Part shown: piece by piece, positions 18,166 through 59,998 of the stretch
How the letters are laid out: every line of letters starts with the position of its first letter
Numbering within the stretch: the first letter of the stretch is position 1
DNA from: Variovorax saccharolyticus
Lineage (GTDB): Bacteria > Pseudomonadota > Gammaproteobacteria > Burkholderiales > Burkholderiaceae_C
NCBI RefSeq assembly: GCF_030316765.1
Contig: NZ_JASZYT010000001.1
Location: 62,001 to 126,000, forward strand
Length of the DNA: 64,000 bases
Reading direction: 5' to 3'
Notes under the pieces: model-generated
The model's input: only the letters and a program-made list of their open reading frames with translations
What the model was told of the DNA's origin: nothing
Database searches by the model: none
Made by a program: the position numbers and the translations under genes

Positions 18166-18255
18166 GGAGAGGTGGCAGAGTGGTCGAATGTACCTGACTC
18201 GAAATCAGGCGTACTAGCGATAGTACCGAGGGTTCGAATCCCTCCCTCTCCTCCA
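18166..18255 (+). tRNA. tRNA-Ser(CGA)
   Basis: 90-nt class II tRNA with encoded CCA. Acceptor stem GGAGAGG pairs with CCTCTCC. Anticodon stem CCTGA/TCAGG encloses the loop CTCGAAA, so the anticodon is CGA (reads UCG). The long variable arm is GTACTAGCGATAGTAC; the T arm contains GGTTCGAATCC. It lies directly behind serS and is followed by a strong terminator. UCG is a frequent serine codon in this GC-rich genome. Confidence 0.97.
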
Positions 18256-50052: not shown

Positions 50053-50775
50053 ATGGGACAAGGCTGGAGCTGGTCGGGATTCGCCGACTACCTGTTCAAT
50101 CCGTACATCCTGAACGGGGCGCTGACCACGCTCTGGCTCACCCTGGCGTCGATCGCCGGCGGCCTGGTCGTCGGATGTGCGCTGGCCCTGGCCCGCCTGT
50201 CGCGCCACGCCTGGCTGGCGGCGCCGGCGCACTTCTACATCTGGGTCTTCCGCGGCACGCCGCTGCTGGTGCAGCTGATCATCATCTACACCGGCCTGCC
50301 GCAGCTCGGGGTCAAGCTGTCGGTGGTCGAGTCGGCGCTGCTCGGTCTGATCCTCAACGAGGCCGCCTATCTTGCCGAGGTGGTGCGCGGCGGCATCCAG
50401 TCGGTGCCGGCGGGCCAGACCAACGCGGCGCGCGCGGTCGGCTTCAGCAGCGCCCAGTCGATGCGCTACATCGTGATGCCACAGGCCATGCGCCTGATCA
50501 TCCCGACGCTGGGCAACAGCATCAACGGCCTGCTCAAGACCACCTCGATCACTTCGGTGATCTCGATGGAAGAGCTGCTGCGCCGCACCCAGGTTCTGAT
50601 CCAGGAGAAGTTCATGGTGCTGGAGCTGTTCGTCGTCGCCGCCATCTACTACCTGCTGATGACCACGGCGTGGGACTTCATCCAGCGCCGCATCGAGCGC
50701 CACTACGGCCGCGCCTACGGCACCGCGAGCGCCGCCGTGCCGGTGGCGACCGAGGCCGTGCTTGAGCAACGCTAG
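50053..50775 (+). CDS. polar amino acid ABC transporter permease
   Basis: 240-residue HisM/GlnP-type permease with about five helices: ILNGALTTLWLTLASIAGGLVVG, FRGTPLLVQL, and the EAA-loop region EVVRGGIQSVPAGQTNAARAVGFS. Only one permease gene is present, so the transporter would use a homodimer. Good Shine-Dalgarno (GAAGGAAAG). The hydantoinase gene starts 13 bp after its stop. Confidence 0.94.
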   Translation: MGQGWSWSGFADYLFNPYILNGALTTLWLTLASIAGGLVVGCALALARLSRHAWLAAPAHFYIWVFRGTPLLVQLIIIYTGLPQLGVKLSVVESALLGLILNEAAYLAEVVRGGIQSVPAGQTNAARAVGFSSAQSMRYIVMPQAMRLIIPTLGNSINGLLKTTSITSVISMEELLRRTQVLIQEKFMVLELFVVAAIYYLLMTTAWDFIQRRIERHYGRAYGTASAAVPVATEAVLEQR

Positions 50776-50788
50776 CCGGAGCCGTGCC

Positions 50789-52243
50789 ATGAACCACTAC
50801 GACCTGATCCTTCGCAACGCCGACATCGCCACGGTCGGCGACCGCTATCGCGCCGACATCGGCGTGCGCGACGGCCGCATCTGCGCCATCGCGCAGCAGC
50901 TCGACGGCAGCGCCGCGCGCGAGATCGATGCCGCGGGCCGGCTGGTCACGCCCGGCGGCGTCGACGGCCACTGCCACTTCGACCAGCCGACCAGCGACGG
51001 CTCGCGCTTTGCCGACGACTTCTTCACCGGCACCCGCTCGGCGGCCTGCGGCGGCACCACCACGGTGCTGCCGTTCGCGGCGCAGCAGAAGGGTCACAGC
51101 ATCCAGGAGGCGGTCGACGACTACCACCGCCGCGCCGAAGGCAAGGCGGTGATCGACTACGCCTTCCACCTGATCGTGGCCGACGCCACCAAGGACGTGA
51201 CGCAGCGCGAGCTGCCGGCCCTGATCGAGAAGGGCTACACCTCCTTCAAGATCTACATGACCTACGACGACCTGAAGCTGGCCGACCGGCAGATCATCGA
51301 GGTGCTGGCGGTGGCGCGCAAGCACGGCGCGATGACCATGATCCACGCCGAGAACAGCGACTGCATCGCCTGGCTCACCGAGCAGCTGCTCGAAGCCGGC
51401 CTGACCGCGCCGCGCTACCACTCGAGCTCGCGGCCGATGGCGGTGGAGCGCGAGGCCACGCACCGTGCGATCGCGCTGGCCGAGCTGATCGACACCCCGA
51501 TCCTGATCGTCCACGTGTCGGGCCGGGAGGCGGTCGAGCAGATCCACTGGGCGCGCGGGCGCGGGCTGCCGATCCATGCCGAGACCTGCCCGCAGTACCT
51601 GTTCCTGAGCGCCGAGGACCTGGGCATCGATCCGGACGACCCGATGCATGGCGCGCGCTGCATCTGCAGCCCGCCGCCGCGCGACAAGGGCAACCAGCAG
51701 TTCATCTGGAACGGCCTGTCGAGCGGGCTGTTCACGATCTTCTCGTCCGACCACGCGCCGTTCAACATGCAAGGCAGCGACGGCAAGCGCGTTGCCGGCG
51801 ACGATGCCTCCTTCGACCGCATCCCGAACGGCATTCCTGGCGTCGAGACCCGGCTGCCGCTCTTGATGAGCGAGGGCGTGATGGCCGGACGCATCGACAT
51901 CCACCGCTTCGTCGAACTCACGGCCACCAACCCGGCGCGGCTCTACGGGCTGTACCCGAAGAAGGGCACCATCGCGGTCGGCGGCGACGCCGACTTCGTG
52001 GTCTGGGACGTGTTCGGCGAGGGCGAGGAGAAGATCATCGCCAACGACATGCTCCACCACGCGGCCGACTACACGCCCTACGAGGGCATGAAGCTGCGCG
52101 CCTGGCCGGGGGTCACGGTGTCCCGCGGCCGGGTGGTCTGGCAGGACGGCGTGTTCTCGGCTGCGGCCGGCTCGGGCCAGTTCCAGCCCTGCCTGCGGCC
52201 GCGCACGCCCAATGCCACGAATCCGCTCGACAAGTGGATCTGA
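50789..52243 (+). CDS. dihydropyrimidinase / D-hydantoinase family hydrolase
   Basis: 484-residue cyclic amidohydrolase, family length. Binuclear metal site: HCH in GGVDGHCHFDQPT, carboxylated Lys in YTSFKIYMTYD (about 152), His in MIHAENSD, His in IHAETCPQY, and Asp in FSSDHAPFN. HydA-type enzymes open hydantoins or dihydropyrimidines to N-carbamoyl amino acids. In this cluster an M20 deacylase could remove the carbamoyl or acyl group next. Start at 50789 gives NHYDLILRNADIATVG, the usual N-terminus. Confidence 0.93.
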   Translation: MNHYDLILRNADIATVGDRYRADIGVRDGRICAIAQQLDGSAAREIDAAGRLVTPGGVDGHCHFDQPTSDGSRFADDFFTGTRSAACGGTTTVLPFAAQQKGHSIQEAVDDYHRRAEGKAVIDYAFHLIVADATKDVTQRELPALIEKGYTSFKIYMTYDDLKLADRQIIEVLAVARKHGAMTMIHAENSDCIAWLTEQLLEAGLTAPRYHSSSRPMAVEREATHRAIALAELIDTPILIVHVSGREAVEQIHWARGRGLPIHAETCPQYLFLSAEDLGIDPDDPMHGARCICSPPPRDKGNQQFIWNGLSSGLFTIFSSDHAPFNMQGSDGKRVAGDDASFDRIPNGIPGVETRLPLLMSEGVMAGRIDIHRFVELTATNPARLYGLYPKKGTIAVGGDADFVVWDVFGEGEEKIIANDMLHHAADYTPYEGMKLRAWPGVTVSRGRVVWQDGVFSAAAGSGQFQPCLRPRTPNATNPLDKWI

Positions 52244-52293
52244 AGTTCTCGCGTCGCACCGCATCGGCCTGCTAAGCTTTTCCCCGTCCCTTC

Positions 52294-53001
52294 GTGGAAA
52301 CCTTCCATCTCCGCATGCCAAGCCTTCCCAGTCCCGCGCAACCCGCCACCATCACCATCGCTCCGCTGGAGGTGCGCTCCGCCAGCCTGGCCGAGCAGGC
52401 CTACGCGAGCCTGCGCACGCTGATCCTCGACCGCAAGATTTCCCCCGGCAGCCCGCTCCAGGAAGGCCGCCTGGCGGACGACCTGCGGATCTCGCGCACG
52501 CCGATGCGCGAGGCGCTGGTGCGGCTGGCCGGCGAGGGCCTGCTGGTGCGCCGCGACGCGCGCTCCTATGCGGTGCGCGCGCTGGGCACCAAGGAGTACT
52601 TCGACTGCATGCGGGCGCGCGAGGTGATCGAATGCGAGGCCATCGCACAGGCCTGCGGCAAGATCACCGATGCCGAGATCGATGCGCTCGAAGCCGATCT
52701 CAAGACCCTCGACAGCGGCGAGCATGACGAGATCGAGCACTGGCATTTCGACGACCGCTTCCACCAGCTGATCTCCACCGCCAGCGGCAACGTGGTGTTC
52801 CCGCGCCTGGTCGAGGAACTGCGCGTGAATGCGCGGCTGTTCCGGCTGCACAGTCCGCTGCACCGCCAGCGCGAGAACCACGAAGAGCACGGCGAGATCA
52901 TCCAGGCCCTGCGCGCACGGGATCCCGAGCGGGCCCGTGCGGCCATGCGCGAGCACCTGCGCAGCCTGCAGGAAGACGTCAAGCGCGCGATCATCGAGTG
53001 A
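52294..53001 (+). CDS. GntR-family regulator with FCD domain
   Basis: 235-residue repressor-type protein. Winged helix at about 30-95 (LAEQAYASLRTLILDRKISPGSPLQE, RISRTPMREALVRLAGEGLLV), then a helical FCD domain whose metal/ligand residues include HFDDRFHQLI and HEEHGEIIQAL. The first 25 residues are Pro/Thr-rich, and an ATG at 52315 is an alternative start. Last gene of the plus-strand operon; probably binds the GTATAC site at 48164-48188 and responds to the cluster's substrate. Confidence 0.93.
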   Translation: METFHLRMPSLPSPAQPATITIAPLEVRSASLAEQAYASLRTLILDRKISPGSPLQEGRLADDLRISRTPMREALVRLAGEGLLVRRDARSYAVRALGTKEYFDCMRAREVIECEAIAQACGKITDAEIDALEADLKTLDSGEHDEIEHWHFDDRFHQLISTASGNVVFPRLVEELRVNARLFRLHSPLHRQRENHEEHGEIIQALRARDPERARAAMREHLRSLQEDVKRAIIE

Positions 53002-55570: not shown

Positions 55571-56401
55571 CTACATCGACCAGATGCGCGGCGGCTCGCT
55601 GGTCATGCCCCAGAGTTCGGCGCGCCAGGCTTTCCAGACCTGGCGCAGCAGCTGCATCGCCGGCTCGACCACCGGCGCCAGGGCGCGCAGCACGATGATC
55701 TCGGCATGCGGACTGGTGGCGCCGGCGCTCTCGTGCAGTGGGTGGGCCTCGATCAGCGAGCGCGCGGCGTCGAGCGCCGCATCGCGGCGCGCGCGCGCGA
55801 TCGGCGAGCCGGCGACGAAGAAGATCGACGCCAGGCAGCGCTGCCCCGCAAGACCGAGCGGGCTCTGCAGCAGCCGCCGGTCGTCGGCGTCGATGCGCCC
55901 GCGCTCCAGCCACCTGCCCGGGGCCTCGATGTGCTGCTGCAGCGTGCCGCGTTCGAAGGGCTTGCCGGCGTTGGGCAGGCCGAGGGCCGTGACGTCCCAG
56001 CCGATCAGCTCGGCGCCGGCCTCGACCCGCAGGGTCAGCCGGTTCTCGGCCCGGCAGCCGCTGAAGCAGATCGCCTCGAGCGGCAGCCATTCGAGACGGG
56101 CGCCGGCTTCGACACTCAGTTCGGTCCGCTGCAAGGCCAGTTCGCCGTCCGAGCGGTAGAAGCGAGAGGCGCCGGGCGTCGTGATGAGGCCGTGGCTGCC
56201 AGCCGCGGCACGCACGCGGATGTCGAGCGTGTCGCCGCCGACCAGGCCGCCGGGCGGATGCACCAGCACGTTGTGGCAGACCGCGTCGCCCTCGGGGTAG
56301 AGGCTCTGCAGGATGCGCAGCGGGCCGTCATGGCGGAAGCGGGCGACGCTGCGCCGGCTTTCGGATTGGTAGTCGAGATCGAGTCGGGCGTGCCAGGGCA
56401 T
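55571..56401 (-). CDS. ureD: urease accessory protein UreD, without neighbouring urease genes
   Basis: 276-residue UreD/UreH homologue, full length. Family marks: DGPLRILQSLYPEG, VHPPGGLVGGDTLDI, TTPGASRFYRS, EWLPLEAICFSGCRAEN, and IGWDVTALGLPNAGKPF. UreD binds the urease apoenzyme and, with UreFG, guides nickel insertion. Here no ureA, B, C, E, F or G follows; downstream is an MFS gene and upstream a nucleoside deaminase. urtABCDE ends 12 kb away on the opposite strand. It may serve a urease encoded elsewhere or be a leftover. Confidence 0.93.
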   Translation of the reverse strand: MPWHARLDLDYQSESRRSVARFRHDGPLRILQSLYPEGDAVCHNVLVHPPGGLVGGDTLDIRVRAAAGSHGLITTPGASRFYRSDGELALQRTELSVEAGARLEWLPLEAICFSGCRAENRLTLRVEAGAELIGWDVTALGLPNAGKPFERGTLQQHIEAPGRWLERGRIDADDRRLLQSPLGLAGQRCLASIFFVAGSPIARARRDAALDAARSLIEAHPLHESAGATSPHAEIIVLRALAPVVEPAMQLLRQVWKAWRAELWGMTSEPPRIWSM

Positions 56402-56454: not shown

Positions 56455-56976
56455 TCAGGCCTTCCAGGCCCCCACGTGCGCCGCGCCGGCTTCATCGACC
56501 AGCGCCGGGCCGATGCACTCGATCGGATGCGGCGACGCCCGGAACACGTCGCGGCAGGACAGCTCGGCGTCGCGCTGGTCGCCGCGCTCGCCACGGAACA
56601 CGCGCAGCCGCTCGGCGTCGATGCCGAACACCACGCGGCCGATGTTCGACCAGAAGATCGCGCCCGCGCACATCACGCAGGGCTCGCCCGACGAATAGAT
56701 CGTGGCGCCGGCGAGCTCCTCGCGCGACAGCTTGCGCTCGCCGAGCATGCGCACCGCATTGGTCTCGGCGTGGCCCGTGACGTCGCCGGTCTCGGCGGTG
56801 TTGCAGTAGGCCTCGGCCAGCACCTCGCCGGCCGCCGAGACCACCACCGCGCCGAAGGGCCGGTTGCCGCGCCGGCGCCCGGCGTGCGACCAGACGATCG
56901 CCTTGCGCAGGTAGCGGCCGTCGCGCTCGTCGAGCTGCTGTTCAGCCGGAAAGGTGTCTGAAAGAAGTGAACTCAT
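56455..56976 (-). CDS. nucleoside/guanine deaminase family protein
   Basis: 173-residue zinc deaminase of the CDA superfamily: zinc and proton-shuttle residues in GHAETNAVRM and PCVMCAGAIFWSNIGRVVFGID. The length and FWSNIGRVVFG pattern match guanine deaminase/tRNA-adenosine deaminase relatives; a free-base deaminase is the best guess. Its start overlaps the stop of the NMT1-type binding protein gene by 4 bp, so they are co-translated, and ureD follows after 53 bp. This suggests uptake and nitrogen release from a purine- or pyrimidine-like compound (inference). Confidence 0.88.
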   Translation of the reverse strand: MSSLLSDTFPAEQQLDERDGRYLRKAIVWSHAGRRRGNRPFGAVVVSAAGEVLAEAYCNTAETGDVTGHAETNAVRMLGERKLSREELAGATIYSSGEPCVMCAGAIFWSNIGRVVFGIDAERLRVFRGERGDQRDAELSCRDVFRASPHPIECIGPALVDEAGAAHVGAWKA

Positions 56977-58001
56977 GCCTTGATGCTACGTTCGTTGCGC
57001 GCCGGCAGCATCGAGCTGTTGAAGATGGCGTCGGCCGACGGCCTGGTCTTGAGGCCGAACACCTCGGCCACCTCGTCGACCTGCTGCTCGAGCAGCAGCT
57101 TCTTGATGTCGCCCAGGCCATGGCTGCGCGTATCGGCCGCGCCGACGTACTGCGCGGTGATGGCCCAGCGGTCGAGCTCGATCTTCGCATCGAGGATCGG
57201 CTCGCGCAGGCGCATGGCCGCGATGCTGGGCGCCGGGTTGGCGAAGGTCTCGACGATCGCGCGGTTGGTGGCGCGCAGGAAGGCCGCCACCGCCTTCGGG
57301 TTCTGGGCAATCAGGTTGCTGCTGGCGAGGATCGCGTTGCCGTACAGGTTGACGCCGGCGTCCGAGTACTTCAGCACCGAGAGCTCCTCGCTCTTCATGC
57401 GCGCGAACAGCGAGATCGCGGAGTCGTGGAAGTAGGTGGCTGCATCGACGTCGCCGCGCACCATCACGTTGTCGCGGGCGCTGAAGTCGGTGGTCTGCCA
57501 CTGGAAGGCGTCGGGCTTCATGCCCTGCTTGCGCGCCACCATCGGCCAGGCGCGGCGCGTCGACTCGACGGCGGCGGCAGCGACCTTCTTGCCCTGCAGG
57601 CTCTTGAAGTCGGCGCCGACGCCGCGGTCCTTGCGCCCGATGATCACGAACGGTGCACGGTTGTAGTACTGGTACACCGCCTGCACCATCGGGGTGCCCG
57701 GGTTCTGTGCGTTGAACTCCACCAGCGAGCTGATGTCGCCGAGGCCGAGCTGGTAGACGCCGCTGGCGATGCGCGTGATCGAGGCCACGGAGCCGGCGCC
57801 GGTGTCGATCGTGACGTCGAGTCCTTCGTCCTTGTAGTAACCCTTGCTCTCGGCCAGGAAGAAGGGCGCGGTCTGGCCGTTGATGCGGAAGTCCAGCGTG
57901 AACTTGAGCGGTATCGGCTTGCCGCCCTGGGCGAGGACGGCAGGCGCGGCGAGGGTGGCGGCGCAGGCGGCGCCCGTGGTGATGAAGGTACGGCGTTGCA
58001 T
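56973..58001 (-). CDS. NMT1/SsuA-type ABC transporter substrate-binding protein
   Basis: 342-residue periplasmic protein with signal peptide (RRTFITTGAACAATLAAPAVLAQ, twin Arg). NMT1-fold segments: LKFTLDFRINGQTAPFFLAESKGYYKDEGLDV, GVYQLGLGDISSL, GKKVAAAAVES, NLYGNAILASSNLI. Relatives bind pyrimidines (thiamine precursors), taurine, nitrate or aromatic acids. It has no permease or ATPase beside it; a homologous binding protein with both is at 61519-64000. First gene of the minus-strand unit with the deaminase and ureD; its promoter is one arm of the mirrored region 58062-58238. Start at 58001 follows a GGAGAT ribosome site. Confidence 0.92.
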   Translation of the reverse strand: MQRRTFITTGAACAATLAAPAVLAQGGKPIPLKFTLDFRINGQTAPFFLAESKGYYKDEGLDVTIDTGAGSVASITRIASGVYQLGLGDISSLVEFNAQNPGTPMVQAVYQYYNRAPFVIIGRKDRGVGADFKSLQGKKVAAAAVESTRRAWPMVARKQGMKPDAFQWQTTDFSARDNVMVRGDVDAATYFHDSAISLFARMKSEELSVLKYSDAGVNLYGNAILASSNLIAQNPKAVAAFLRATNRAIVETFANPAPSIAAMRLREPILDAKIELDRWAITAQYVGAADTRSHGLGDIKKLLLEQQVDEVAEVFGLKTRPSADAIFNSSMLPARNERSIKA

Positions 58002-58061
58002 GTGGGTGATCTCCGGAATTCGCGGGGCCTTGAACACCCCGCCGGGCCGGCGAGGCACTTC

Positions 58062-58238
58062 AAGAGCAATTTCCGGGCGGCGCACGAATCGGGTGCGTGC
58101 GCTGCTGAACGCTTCTACTCTTGACCGCTGTCATGCAGGAGGCATGCCAGCGCCGCGGGCCCGCAATTTGCATGAGAATCGGAGCAGAGTAGAAGCGTTC
58201 AGCTCCAGCGCACGGTCGCGGAGCGGGAAATTGCTCTT
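58062..58238. promoter_or_regulatory. mirror-image divergent promoter/leader modules
   Basis: Two near-identical modules face outward. Each reads TGCATGA, 9-10 bp, AGAGTAGAAGCGTTCAGC, a 22-29 bp variable part, then GGAAATTGCTCTT. Plus arm: 58169-58175, 58186-58203 and 58226-58238. Minus arm: 58131-58137, 58104-58121 and 58062-58074. A weak sigma-70 fit is TTGCAT, 16 bp, TAGAAG (plus) and CTGCAT, 15 bp, TAGAAG (minus). It would give the binding-protein operon and the Rieske operon the same control. Confidence 0.8.
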
Positions 58239-58274
58239 TCAGGTGGGTCCCCACGCAACCGAAGGAGTCTTTTC

Positions 58275-59351
58275 ATGCTCGTCACGCAGCAACCCGTTTT
58301 CCGCAAGTTCTGGCATGCCGTCATGCCCCTGGCCGATCTGCAGCAGGGCCCGAAGCCCTTCACGCTGCTCGGCGAGAACATCGTCCTGTTCCTCGATGCC
58401 GACGGCCAGCCCGCCGCCTTGCGCGACCGCTGCTGCCACCGCACTGCGAAGCTGTCCAAGGGCTGGTGCGTCGACGGCGAAGGCAAGGCCTGCGGGCAGG
58501 GCGCGATCCAGTGCGGCTACCACGGCTGGACCTACGACCGCAGCGGCCAGGTGATCCGCATCCCTCAGTACGAGCCGGACCGCAAGATCTCGCCCGAATA
58601 CAAGACCACCGCCTACCACTGCAGCGCGCGCTACGGCTACGCCTGGGTCGCGCTCGAGGAGCCGATCGCGGAGATCCCGGCGATTCCGGAGTTCGACGAT
58701 CCGGGATTTCGCACCATCCACCAGTTCTATGAAGAGTGGCAGACCAGCCCGATGCGCGCGCTCGAGAACTCCTTCGACAACTCGCACTTCAGCTTCGTGC
58801 ACCGGGCGACCTTCGGCGTGGCCGCGAGCCCGAAGCCGAGCAAGTACGAACTGGTCGAGAACGAATCGGGCTTCTACGCCGAGACCGTGATCCAGGCGGT
58901 CAACCCCGAGAAGTTCCATGCGATCAGCGGCGTGACCGACCCGATCACCACCCGCCACATGCGCAACGCCTACTTCCTGCCGTTCTCGCGCCGGCTCGAC
59001 ATCGAGTACCCCTCGGGCATCCGCCACATCATCATCAACTGCTTCACGCCGATCGACGACGGCCGCATGCAGCTGTGCCAATGGCTGTTCCGCAACGACA
59101 CCGAGGCCGATTGCGCGGCGCAGATGCTGATCGACTTCGACGAGGAGATCACGCGCGAGGACAAGGACATCCTCGAGTCGACCGACCCCGATGCGCTGGT
59201 CGACACCCGCCGGCGCGGCGTCGAGTATTCGATGGAGTCCGACCGCCCCGGTATGCTGATCCGCAAGCACCTGATGCAGCTGCTGGCCAGGCATGGCGAG
59301 GCCGAGGTGCATCGCGGCATGCGCGTGGTGCCGCTGCAGCAGGCCGCCTGA
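58275..59351 (+). CDS. Rieske-type aromatic ring-hydroxylating/demethylating oxygenase alpha subunit
   Basis: 358-residue oxygenase. Rieske domain: first ligand pair Cys-x-His in DRCCHRTAKLSKGW, second in QCGYHGWTYDRSG (about 76-79). The catalytic non-haem iron site is NSFDNSHFSFVHRATFG (Asp-x2-His-x4-His, about 165-180), with the distal Asp further on. The fold resembles the phthalate/vanillate-demethylase group (alpha-3 type, no beta subunit). The gap between the two ligand pairs is 24 residues, longer than usual, and contains two extra cysteines. First gene of the plus-strand operon. Substrate probably an aromatic or heterocycle imported by the NMT1-type systems around it (inference). Confidence 0.92.
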   Translation: MLVTQQPVFRKFWHAVMPLADLQQGPKPFTLLGENIVLFLDADGQPAALRDRCCHRTAKLSKGWCVDGEGKACGQGAIQCGYHGWTYDRSGQVIRIPQYEPDRKISPEYKTTAYHCSARYGYAWVALEEPIAEIPAIPEFDDPGFRTIHQFYEEWQTSPMRALENSFDNSHFSFVHRATFGVAASPKPSKYELVENESGFYAETVIQAVNPEKFHAISGVTDPITTRHMRNAYFLPFSRRLDIEYPSGIRHIIINCFTPIDDGRMQLCQWLFRNDTEADCAAQMLIDFDEEITREDKDILESTDPDALVDTRRRGVEYSMESDRPGMLIRKHLMQLLARHGEAEVHRGMRVVPLQQAA

Positions 59352-59389
59352 AGCGGCGCTACCATGGCGCTCCAATCGAAGGAGTGCCG

Positions 59390-59998
59390 ATGGTCACGCG
59401 TGGATTCACAGGACGACGTCCGACCGCTGCCTTTGCCCGCCGCCTGCCGCCCGGCCAGTTCGAGACCGACGACTTCCCGGTGCTGGCCAAGGGGCCGACG
59501 CCCGAGGTCGATCTCGCGGCCTGGCGCTTCACGCTGAGCCAGGGGCCGCGTCCGCTCGCGAGCTGGAACTGGGCCGAGTTCCAGGCGCTGCCGCGCACGC
59601 TGTGGCAGGGCGACATCCACTGCGTCACGACCTGGTCCAAGTTCGACACCCGCTGGGAGGGAGTGAGCATCGACGACCTGCTGGCCGCTGCGGGCGTGGC
59701 GCCGCCCAGTGCCTTCTTGCTGGCGCTCTCGCACGACGACTACGACACCAACGTTCCGCTGGCCGACCTGGTCGGCGGACGCGCGATGGTAGCGACCCAT
59801 TTCGACGGCCAGCCGCTCACGGCGGAGCATGGCGGGCCGGCGCGGCTGCTGGTGCCGCACCTGTACTTCTGGAAGAGCGCCAAGTGGCTCAAGGGCCTGC
59901 GCTTCACGGCGCGCGACGAGGCCGGCTTCTGGGAGCTGCGCGGCTACCACATGTACGGCGATCCGTGGAAGCAGCAGCGCTACTCGGACGATCCGTGA
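59390..59998 (+). CDS. sulfite-oxidase-like molybdopterin oxidoreductase (YuiH/YedY-type catalytic domain)
   Basis: 202-residue protein consisting of the Oxidored_molyb domain: LASWNWAEFQALPRTLWQGDIHCVTTWSKFDTRWEGVS contains the molybdenum-ligating Cys in the HCVTTWS motif (about 79). LALSHDDYDTNVPL and the end GYHMYGDPWKQQRYSDD are typical. No dimerisation domain, haem domain or TAT signal, so it is a cytosolic minimal form. Its stop overlaps the GTG of the flavin reductase gene, so the reductase is probably its redox partner. Reaction unknown. Confidence 0.9.
   Translation: MVTRGFTGRRPTAAFARRLPPGQFETDDFPVLAKGPTPEVDLAAWRFTLSQGPRPLASWNWAEFQALPRTLWQGDIHCVTTWSKFDTRWEGVSIDDLLAAAGVAPPSAFLLALSHDDYDTNVPLADLVGGRAMVATHFDGQPLTAEHGGPARLLVPHLYFWKSAKWLKGLRFTARDEAGFWELRGYHMYGDPWKQQRYSDDP

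What the first reader, a model, noticed from the sequence alone, without database searches (positions are those of the whole stretch)
58062..58238. Mirror-image promoter modules drive two divergent operons
Seen: three blocks (TGCATGA, AGAGTAGAAGCGTTCAGC, GGAAATTGCTCTT) occur in the same order and nearly the same spacing on both strands, pointing away from a centre near 58153, while the DNA between the blocks has diverged. Retention of only the blocks suggests selection on each. Inference: one regulator or one RNA-leader signal controls both the binding-protein/deaminase/ureD operon and the Rieske/molybdoenzyme operon. The third block is close to both start codons (36 and 60 bp), so it may act in the 5' UTR. 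No regulator gene is next to it.
Basis: seen in the sequence. Interest (0 to 1): 0.75.

Follow-up and report, generated by a model that had tools for sequence, protein, structure and literature searches.

The report
Paired xanthine riboswitches behind sigma-54 promoters
The mirror-image blocks are two copies of a known RNA switch that senses xanthine or uric acid, set back to back, each starting at what looks like the kind of promoter that bacteria use when short of nitrogen; I did not find that promoter layer, or the likely activator site inside one of the switches, described before.

Summary
The two long blocks are the conserved strands of two xanthine (NMT1) riboswitch aptamers, Rfam RF03054, at 58059-58125 (-) and 58182-58241 (+), both above the gathering score. 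The class is known, and one divergent pair is mentioned in print. In the family sample all 44 close pairs among 128 hits are divergent.

The first block, TGCATGA, lies outside the RNA. It is the -12 element of a sigma-54 promoter. Such a promoter precedes 80 of 88 paired aptamers (shuffles: mean 3.7, maximum 10), with the predicted RNA start at or within a few bases of the aptamer. Word searches of the two main papers found no mention of it.

In the window's genus an NtrC-like dyad, GCAC-N7-GTGC, lies inside stem P2b of 68 of 78 binding-protein-side aptamers and of 0 of 82 Rieske-side ones.

Best reading: nitrogen shortage switches on both operons through sigma-54, and xanthine or urate tunes them through twin riboswitches. 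All of this is sequence evidence; the sign of the switch is open here.

The parts
58059..58125 (-). Xanthine (NMT1) riboswitch aptamer in the leader of the NMT1/deaminase/ureD operon
   Evidence: RF03054, 56.1 bits, gathering 36; holds the pocket nucleotides of the crystal RNA (compared by eye)
58182..58241 (+). Xanthine (NMT1) riboswitch aptamer in the leader of the Rieske/molybdoenzyme operon
   Evidence: RF03054, 51.4 bits, gathering 36
58134..58149 (-). Sigma-54 -24/-12 promoter TGGCATGCCTCCTGCA; holds most of the minus TGCATGA block (58131-58137)
   Evidence: 10 of 12 consensus positions, exact GG-N10-GC
58157..58172 (+). Sigma-54 -24/-12 promoter GGGCCCGCAATTTGCA; holds the start of the plus TGCATGA block (58169-58175)
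   Evidence: 10 of 12 consensus positions, exact GG-N10-GC
58123..58123 (-). Predicted transcription start (12 nt after the -12 C), within a few nt
   Evidence: Inferred from promoter geometry; not mapped
58183..58183 (+). Predicted transcription start, within a few nt
   Evidence: Inferred from promoter geometry; not mapped
58082..58096 (.). NtrC-like dyad GCAC-GAATCGG-GTGC inside stem-loop P2b of the minus aptamer
   Evidence: 10 of 12 positions of GCACCANNNTGGTGC; exact GCAC-N7-GTGC in 68 of 78 binding-protein-side and 0 of 82 Rieske-side aptamers of the genus
58029..58034 (-). TTCAAG, able to pair with the 3' strand of P1 (58059-58064) in competition with P1: candidate expression platform
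   Evidence: A complement of at least 6 nt exists in 60 of 71 genus copies, shuffles mean 4.2, max 8
56973..58001 (-). NMT1/THI5-like ABC-transporter binding protein
   Evidence: PF09084
56455..56976 (-). TadA-like zinc deaminase
   Evidence: PF00383; best NCBIfam match TadA, below its cut-off
55571..56401 (-). UreD-family protein, the only UreD match in the genome
   Evidence: PF01774
58275..59351 (+). Rieske non-haem iron oxygenase
   Evidence: PF00355 and VanA_C; among the best PDB sequence matches are the methylxanthine demethylases NdmB/NdmA
59348..59998 (+). Molybdopterin-binding oxidoreductase (start not determined)
   Evidence: PF00174
59983..60732 (+). FAD/NAD(P) reductase, probable electron donor (start not determined)
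   Evidence: PF00970, PF00175

Best explanation
Two divergent operons, probably for uptake and oxidation of purine-related compounds, are each read from a sigma-54 promoter whose transcript begins with a xanthine riboswitch. Shown by sequence: the two aptamers, the two -24/-12 promoters placed so that the RNA starts at or within a few bases of P1, and an NtrC-like dyad inside P2b of the minus aptamer. Inferred: under nitrogen shortage phosphorylated NtrC (or a similar enhancer-binding protein) activates both promoters; xanthine or urate then binds each leader, stabilises P1 against a competing downstream stem and changes translation of the first gene. The published sign is repression; it was not established for these two leaders.
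For: Riboswitch: RF03054 hits at 56.1 and 51.4 bits; pocket nucleotides as in the crystal RNA. Sigma-54: 80 of 88 upstream regions of 44 family pairs match at 9 of 12 or better with exact GG-N10-GC (200 shuffles: mean 3.7, max 10), 77 of 88 at 28-34 bases before the core (null mean 0.6, max 3); 162 of 166 genus aptamers; 33 of 37 unpaired family aptamers; 88 of 90 named Burkholderiales aptamers against 0.46% of 20,000 random 60-mers. These sets overlap. The published Hydrogenophaga pair has both promoters (L211). The genome has one RpoN and one NtrC above its cut-off. NtrC-like sites: 21 of 44 pair regions at 10 of 12 or better after masking the promoters (60 shuffles: mean 1.0, max 5); unmasked 22 of 44 against 2 of 86 control flanks. 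Embedded site: exact GCAC-N7-GTGC in 68 of 78 NMT1-side, 0 of 82 Rieske-side, 1 of 5 dioxygenase-side and 0 of 1 other genus aptamers, sorted by downstream gene only. Function fits: in Burkholderia cenocepacia xanthine dehydrogenase and urate oxidase clusters are named among common sigma-54/NtrC targets (PMC5491218, passages).
Against: No start site, binding or expression was measured. The window's own dyad matches the NtrC box at only 10 of 12, and such matches alone are common (18 in this 64-kb window). 23 of 44 family pairs have no NtrC-like site at this cut-off. In the genus the gap between the aptamers holds none (0 in 9,390 nt). The only nitrogen gene checked for validation, upstream of a PII-like/amt pair in this genome, shows no promoter match at 10 of 12, but only about 170 nt are held there before the contig ends. 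The dyad lies just downstream of the minus start, an unusual place. The promoter is not universal: 2 of 23 named gamma and 8 of 17 named alpha aptamers have it at the fixed place, and 44 of 72 in the remaining group. Folding does not give one sign of control: the Shine-Dalgarno region is less open with P1 formed in the minus leader, more open in the plus leader, and less open in only 9 of 58 genus leaders.
Confidence: 0.8

Rival explanations
1. Only the riboswitches are real; transcription comes from ordinary sigma-70 promoters, and TGCATGA is a chance or lineage-inherited similarity.
For: No start site is known. The published reporter used a foreign thiC promoter, so the native promoter was not tested there. 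TGCATGA itself varies among relatives.
Against: The conserved part is not TGCATGA but GG-N10-GC with TGGC and TGC at a fixed distance, in 80 of 88, 162 of 166 and 33 of 37 aptamers, far above shuffles and random genomic windows. It also occurs in 8 of 11 alphaproteobacterial loci. Second same-strand copies further along the contig, where no promoter is expected, lack it: L109 and L110 and five alpha loci, L222, L248, L257, L268, L272.
Confidence: 0.07
2. The GCAC-N7-GTGC dyad in P2b is conserved for an RNA reason (tertiary contact, loop pairing or protein binding to RNA), not as an activator site on DNA.
For: It lies in transcribed RNA, and part of it (GTGC) is in the P2b stem. The right half matches the NtrC box only in GTGC; positions 6-7 of the spacer are not TG as a rule. 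The 68 binding-protein-side copies are from one genus and share ancestry.
Against: The left half GCAC sits mostly in the predicted apical loop and is not needed by the aptamer, whose P2b varies freely in 94 other genus copies (75 distinct sequences of 12-47 nt). No downstream GGTGC partner is enriched (3 of 72, shuffles 2.4). The spacer is exactly 7 nt in 68 of 70 copies with both arms, despite 39 different spacer sequences, and its first two bases are mostly C (62 of 68) and A (55 of 68), as in GCACCA. One copy (G408) breaks a P2b stem pair but keeps the dyad (by eye).
Confidence: 0.3
3. The activator is another enhancer-binding protein, specific for purines, not NtrC.
For: The genome encodes eight further proteins with long matches to the NtrC model. 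23 of 44 family pairs lack an NtrC-like box at the cut-off used.
Against: The sites that are present fit the NtrC box of E. coli (PMC8743547, passages) about twenty times more often than in shuffles. None of the long NtrC-model matches lies in the window (C1:62001-126000).
Confidence: 0.25
4. The blocks are a DNA inverted repeat left by duplication, with no function as RNA.
For: Two nearly identical blocks in mirror image.
Against: The class is characterised biochemically, with a crystal structure. The aptamers are spread over many genera (44 of 141 sampled genera of the family) while the DNA between the conserved strands diverges.
Confidence: 0.01

Closest known systems
Xanthine riboswitch / NMT1 motif (RF03054), Yu and Breaker 2020, PMC7373994
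   Same: Same covariance model, conserved core, gene partners (NMT1-like, tadA, dioxygenases) and, in Hydrogenophaga intermedia S1, adjacent motifs in opposing orientations (legend of Fig. 5).
   Different: A word search of the main text finds no RpoN, NtrC or native promoter and no molybdoenzyme or sulfite oxidase. It reports an OFF switch, not established for these leaders.
Xanthine riboswitch crystal structure, Xu et al. 2021, PMC8266621
   Same: Both window copies have the core G7-A8-A9-G10-C11-G12, U13-A38, G35, A39 and U40 of the crystallised Ideonella RNA.
   Different: The plus copy has G at the place of C34, a change that the paper found to weaken binding 3- to 4-fold. P2b differs and carries the dyad in the minus copy. 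No RpoN or NtrC in a word search.
NtrC/sigma-54-dependent nitrogen promoters (E. coli set, PMC8743547; B. cenocepacia, PMC5491218)
   Same: TGGCACnnTTnTTGC promoter and TGCACCAnnnTGGTGCA box; purine genes in the regulon.
   Different: Here the RNA is predicted to begin with a riboswitch, two promoters stand back to back with 7 bp between the -24 elements, and the box-like site lies inside the riboswitch.
hpxDE of Klebsiella (known to me through PMC7373994; I tried the original paper and it is not held)
   Same: A Rieske oxygenase with a reductase, linked to purine oxidation.
   Different: Extra molybdoenzyme and OsmC-like genes; best PDB sequence matches are saxitoxin-pathway oxygenases and methylxanthine demethylases; substrate unknown. 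No direct comparison with HpxD was made.

Membership tests
Xanthine riboswitch (RF03054) | Covariance-model score above the gathering cut-off | tested here: met
   56.1 and 51.4 bits against 36
Xanthine riboswitch (RF03054) | P1, P2a, P2b and conserved pocket nucleotides | tested here: met
   Alignments compared by eye; position 34 is G in the plus copy, tolerated in the paper
Xanthine riboswitch (RF03054) | Lies in the 5' leader of purine uptake or oxidation genes | tested here: met
   NMT1/TadA-like and Rieske genes follow, 60 and 36 bp from the third block; their substrates are not known
Xanthine riboswitch (RF03054) | Binds xanthine or urate | not testable with these tools
   Needs in-line probing or calorimetry
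Xanthine riboswitch (RF03054) | Represses translation on binding | tested here: inconclusive
   Folding gives opposite signs for the two leaders; 9 of 58 genus leaders fit OFF
Sigma-54 promoter | GG-N10-GC within TGGCAC-N5-TTGC | tested here: met
   10 of 12 on both sides; conserved in 162 of 166 genus aptamers
Sigma-54 promoter | RpoN encoded in the genome | tested here: met
   One PF04552 match, 215.8 bits
Sigma-54 promoter | Transcription starts about 12 nt after the -12 element and needs RpoN | not testable with these tools
   No RNA data
NtrC-activated promoter | TGCACCA-N3-TGGTGCA box near the promoter | tested here: inconclusive
   10 of 12 in the window; GCAC-N7-GTGC kept in 68 of 78 binding-protein-side genus copies, but the right half is only GTGC
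NtrC-activated promoter | NtrC encoded in the genome | tested here: met
   TIGR01818, 667.3 bits with its neighbour in the frame, cut-off 558.6
NtrC-activated promoter | NtrC binds and activates | not testable with these tools
   Needs footprinting and an ntrC mutant

The most novel reading that the evidence does not exclude
One stretch of DNA works twice: as DNA it is the NtrC-type enhancer that turns on two back-to-back sigma-54 promoters, and as RNA it is the P2b hairpin of the riboswitch that one of those promoters transcribes. More widely, the xanthine riboswitch in Burkholderiales and several alphaproteobacteria is the start of sigma-54 transcripts, so that the class reads oxidised purines only when nitrogen is short.
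Probability: 0.45. Interest if true: 0.72.

Novelty: new variant of a known kind. Interest (0 to 1): 0.52.

Why it matters
Yu and Breaker noted that this riboswitch controls purine uptake and oxidation but not the breakdown of xanthine or urate, and left open what the control is for. A sigma-54 promoter in front of most copies in this family gives a testable answer: the genes belong to the nitrogen-shortage response, and the riboswitch tunes a nitrogen-scavenging pathway by its own intermediates. It also predicts the 5' end of the RNA to within a few bases, and it says that reporter work with a foreign promoter would miss one layer of control. The exchange of two unrelated oxygenases at the same paired locus (34 pairs with a DIOX_N type, 9 with a Rieske type, of 44) suggests that they serve the same step. 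An enhancer inside a riboswitch stem-loop, if shown, would be a compact case of one sequence under both DNA and RNA selection.

Tried and rejected
Sigma-70 reading of block 1: TGCATGA is not a convincing -10 box; set aside after aligning 88 upstream regions. Loop-to-leader pseudoknot as the reason for the conserved loop GCAC: no enriched partner. A ribozyme: the weak CPEB3-like hit (18.2 bits, gathering 35) overlaps the aptamer and is taken as chance. NtrC-like matches partly made by the -24 element itself: checked by masking the promoters; 21 of 44 remain, from 22. A second NtrC-like site at 57683-57697 (11 of 12) recurs in the genus but lies in the NMT1 reading frame; I take it as conserved for the protein (inference from the frame, not tested). 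Validation of the motifs at a PII-like/amt region (the PII-like gene named by eye): no match, but only about 170 nt upstream are held. Sign of the riboswitch by folding: inconclusive.

Rows dropped and limits. Of 128 hits (five of them below the Rfam cut-off), 125 were fetched; three weak ones were not. Of the 37 unpaired ones scored, four lack the promoter: L081 has it at -36, just outside the range, L104 scores 8, and L109 and L110 are second copies. The genus listing was cut; the set analysed holds 166 aptamers from 89 of the 92 genomes with a match, and the first 29 loci were the best-scoring ones. In one search the group of 72 was picked by a pattern that contains the left half GCAC, so the left half is not independent there. 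In one search the group was picked by GCAGCGCAC alone: 69 copies, all 69 followed by GCAC, 65 with the exact dyad. One search sorts by downstream gene, without looking at P2b, and is the fair count; it was added on review. In one search I grouped loci by title, but put L261 (titled Gammaproteobacteria) with Burkholderiales and left L236 with the untitled group. The family, genus and named sets overlap. The consensus strings were chosen after seeing the alignment; they are close to the published ones. Class sample: 4 of 369 genomes have a match, 2 above the cut-off.

Reading. Yu and Breaker: abstract, parts 1-2 of 5 of the text, sections 7 and 8, and word searches. Xu et al.: abstract, sections 12-16 and word searches. 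PMC5491218, PMC4676750, PMC8743547 and PMC12316311: passages only. That I found no description of the sigma-54 link rests (listings and word searches in an open-licence library). Supplements and the 2017 motif-discovery paper were not read (one search found only papers citing it).

Full report
What is there. The mirror-image blocks exist as described. A covariance-model scan of the window gives two hits to one family, RF03054, the xanthine riboswitch aptamer formerly called the NMT1 motif: 58059-58125 on the minus strand (56.1 bits) and 58182-58241 on the plus strand (51.4 bits), gathering score 36. The second block, AGAGTAGAAGCGTTCAGC, is the 5' strand of the core, and the third, GGAAATTGCTCTT, the 3' strand. 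What has diverged between them is mostly the P2b hairpin. By eye, both copies carry the nucleotides that the crystal structure places around the ligand (G7 to G12, G35, A39, U40) and the U13-A38 pair of the crystallised RNA. The plus copy has G at position 34; in the paper C34G costs 3- to 4-fold in affinity.

What was known. Yu and Breaker (PMC7373994) showed that the RNA binds xanthine and urate and that a representative acts as an OFF switch, likely on translation. The legend of their Figure 5 says that Hydrogenophaga intermedia S1 carries adjacent motifs in opposing orientations. So neither the RNA nor the divergent pair is new.

How general the pair is. The own genome has these two copies and no other match. 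In the family sample 75 of 399 genomes have at least one match, in all 128 hits. Of these, 88 form 44 pairs less than 1000 bp apart, and all 44 are divergent. The gap runs from 56 bp, in this window, to 305 bp. In 43 of the 44 pairs one side begins with a gene similar to the NMT1-type binding protein and the other with an oxygenase: 34 similar to a dioxygenase that one representative places in Pfam DIOX_N, and 9 similar to the Rieske protein found here; in the last pair one side was not identified. In the genus 92 of 101 genomes have the RNA, in a spread of the class 4 of 369 (2 above the cut-off), in a spread of the phylum 17 of 398.

The first block. Aligned on GAGTAGAAGCG, the 88 upstream regions show a conserved -24/-12 element of sigma-54 promoters. 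Scored against TGGCACGNNNNTTGCW with an exact GG-N10-GC, 80 of 88 reach 9 of 12; 200 shuffles give 3.7 on average, at most 10. Placed 28 to 34 bases before the core, 77 of 88 do; shuffles give 0.6, at most 3. With slightly wider limits the same holds for 162 of 166 genus aptamers and 33 of 37 unpaired family aptamers. Of the four unpaired exceptions, one has the element at -36, one scores 8, and two (L109, L110) are second copies a few kilobases further along the same strand, where no promoter is expected. In the pattern scan of named genomes it holds for 88 of 90 Burkholderiales, 4 of 4 Rhodocyclales, 8 of 17 alpha, 2 of 23 gamma and 44 of 72 remaining aptamers, against 0.46% of random 60-mers. 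Five of the nine alpha misses are second same-strand copies. In 10 of the 23 gamma aptamers a match lies elsewhere in the 60 bases, so a longer leader is possible. Rouxiella and Prodigiosinella copies show TTGGCA-N5-TTTGTAT, close to the pattern but outside my test. The published Hydrogenophaga pair has the element on both sides (11 and 10 of 12, L211). TGCATGA is thus the -12 element and the bases after it. The promoter geometry puts the RNA starts near 58123 and 58183, so each transcript would begin with its riboswitch. The two promoter elements are separated by 7 bp.

The activator site. Sigma-54 needs an enhancer-binding protein (established knowledge). The genome has one RpoN and one NtrC above the family cut-off. 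NtrC-like boxes (10 of 12 positions of GCACCANNNTGGTGC) occur in 21 of 44 pair regions after masking the promoters; 60 shuffles give 1.0, at most 5. Without masking it is 22 of 44, against 2 of 86 control flanks. Of the 17 such pairs outside the genus, 15 have the box in the gap and two (G384, G190) inside the minus aptamer. In the window's genus (apparently Variovorax, from the titles) it lies inside P2b of the binding-protein-side aptamer: GCACGAATCGGGTGC at 58082-58096. Sorted only by the gene that follows, 68 of 78 NMT1-side aptamers have exact GCAC-N7-GTGC, against 0 of 82 on the Rieske side, 1 of 5 on the dioxygenase side and 0 of 1 unassigned. Among 70 copies with both arms there are 39 distinct spacers; in 68 of the 70 copies the spacer is 7 nt long, with C (62 of 68) and A (55 of 68) in the first two places, as in GCACCA. 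In the 94 other aptamers P2b is free to vary (75 distinct sequences). The left half lies mostly in the predicted RNA loop, so pairing does not explain it.

Results against this reading. The window's box alone would not be significant (18 matches at this level in the window). The right half is weak. The box is absent in 23 of 44 pairs. In the genus the gaps hold no such box (0 in 9,390 nt). A box-like sequence in the NMT1 coding region recurs across the genus (67 matches in the first 600 nt after 71 aptamers), probably because of the protein, which shows that conservation alone is not proof. A PII-like/amt region, the one nitrogen locus that I looked at, did not show the promoter, though little upstream sequence is held. 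Of the named alpha, gamma and Rhodocyclales regions, 5 of 44 have a box at 10 of 12; shuffles give 1.2, at most 4.

The switch. In 60 of 71 genus copies the 3' strand of P1 has an exact complement of at least 6 nt downstream (30 shuffles: 4.2, at most 8). Ligand-stabilised P1 and this stem exclude each other, which is a plausible expression platform. Folding does not settle the sign: the minus leader fits OFF (Shine-Dalgarno region unpaired 0.30 with P1, 0.57 without), the plus leader fits ON (0.56 and 0.19), and only 9 of 58 genus leaders fit OFF. I keep the published OFF as the default and mark it unproven here.

The genes. Minus side: NMT1-type binding protein, TadA-like deaminase, UreD (the only UreD match in the genome) and further on an MFS transporter. 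Plus side: Rieske oxygenase, molybdopterin oxidoreductase, FAD/NAD reductase, OsmC-like protein. The Rieske protein's best PDB matches are SxtT, SxtDIOX and the methylxanthine demethylases NdmB and NdmA (E 4e-31 to 9e-30). The genome also has two matches to the xanthine dehydrogenase large subunit above the cut-off, so the Rieske enzyme is not simply a stand-in for a missing dehydrogenase. In Ralstonia, xanthine as nitrogen source did not support growth of an rpoN1 mutant (PMC4676750, passages), and in B. cenocepacia xanthine dehydrogenase and urate oxidase clusters are named among common sigma-54 and NtrC targets. This makes a nitrogen-shortage role likely.

Verdict. Observation confirmed. 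The RNA elements and their divergent pairing are known. The sigma-54 promoter at the head of this riboswitch class, and the box inside the aptamer, were not found in the literature that I could search. All conclusions are from sequence.

Noticed in passing
window 55571-56401 (-): The UreD-family gene in the riboswitch-controlled operon is the only UreD match in the whole genome. Whether urease structural genes exist elsewhere was not checked.
   Followed up: partly
L032-L074 and the window: At the paired locus two unrelated oxygenases replace each other: 34 of 44 pairs have a DIOX_N-type dioxygenase and 9 a Rieske oxygenase opposite the binding protein, suggesting the same step.
   Followed up: partly
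L218, L271, L304: Three copies, two of them titled Rouxiella and Prodigiosinella, have TTGGCA-N5-TTTGTAT upstream, like sigma-54 with GT in place of GC. L218 and L271 also have an NtrC-like box about 120 nt upstream.
   Followed up: no
L103, L109, L110 and other same-contig copies: In seven genomes a further riboswitch copy lies 2.5 to 4.6 kb away on the same contig (five tandem, two convergent). L109 and L110 lack the sigma-54 promoter, so they may act inside operons.
   Followed up: partly
L163: One genome of the genus (G431) has two plus-strand aptamers in tandem; the second has no promoter match of its own.
   Followed up: no
window 57683-57697: An NtrC-like sequence (11 of 12) in the NMT1 reading frame recurs across the genus at about 420 nt; probably conserved for the protein.
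   Followed up: partly
L141, L142: Weak RF03054-like hits (28.1 bits, below cut-off) in two small genomes of another family, perhaps a distant variant or chance.
   Followed up: no
window 18166-18252 (+): A tRNA gene (RF00005, 59.9 bits).
   Followed up: no
window 50762-52998 (+): A dihydropyrimidinase/hydantoinase gene (PRK13404, 805 bits) followed by a GntR-type regulator, near but not part of the paired operons.
   Followed up: no
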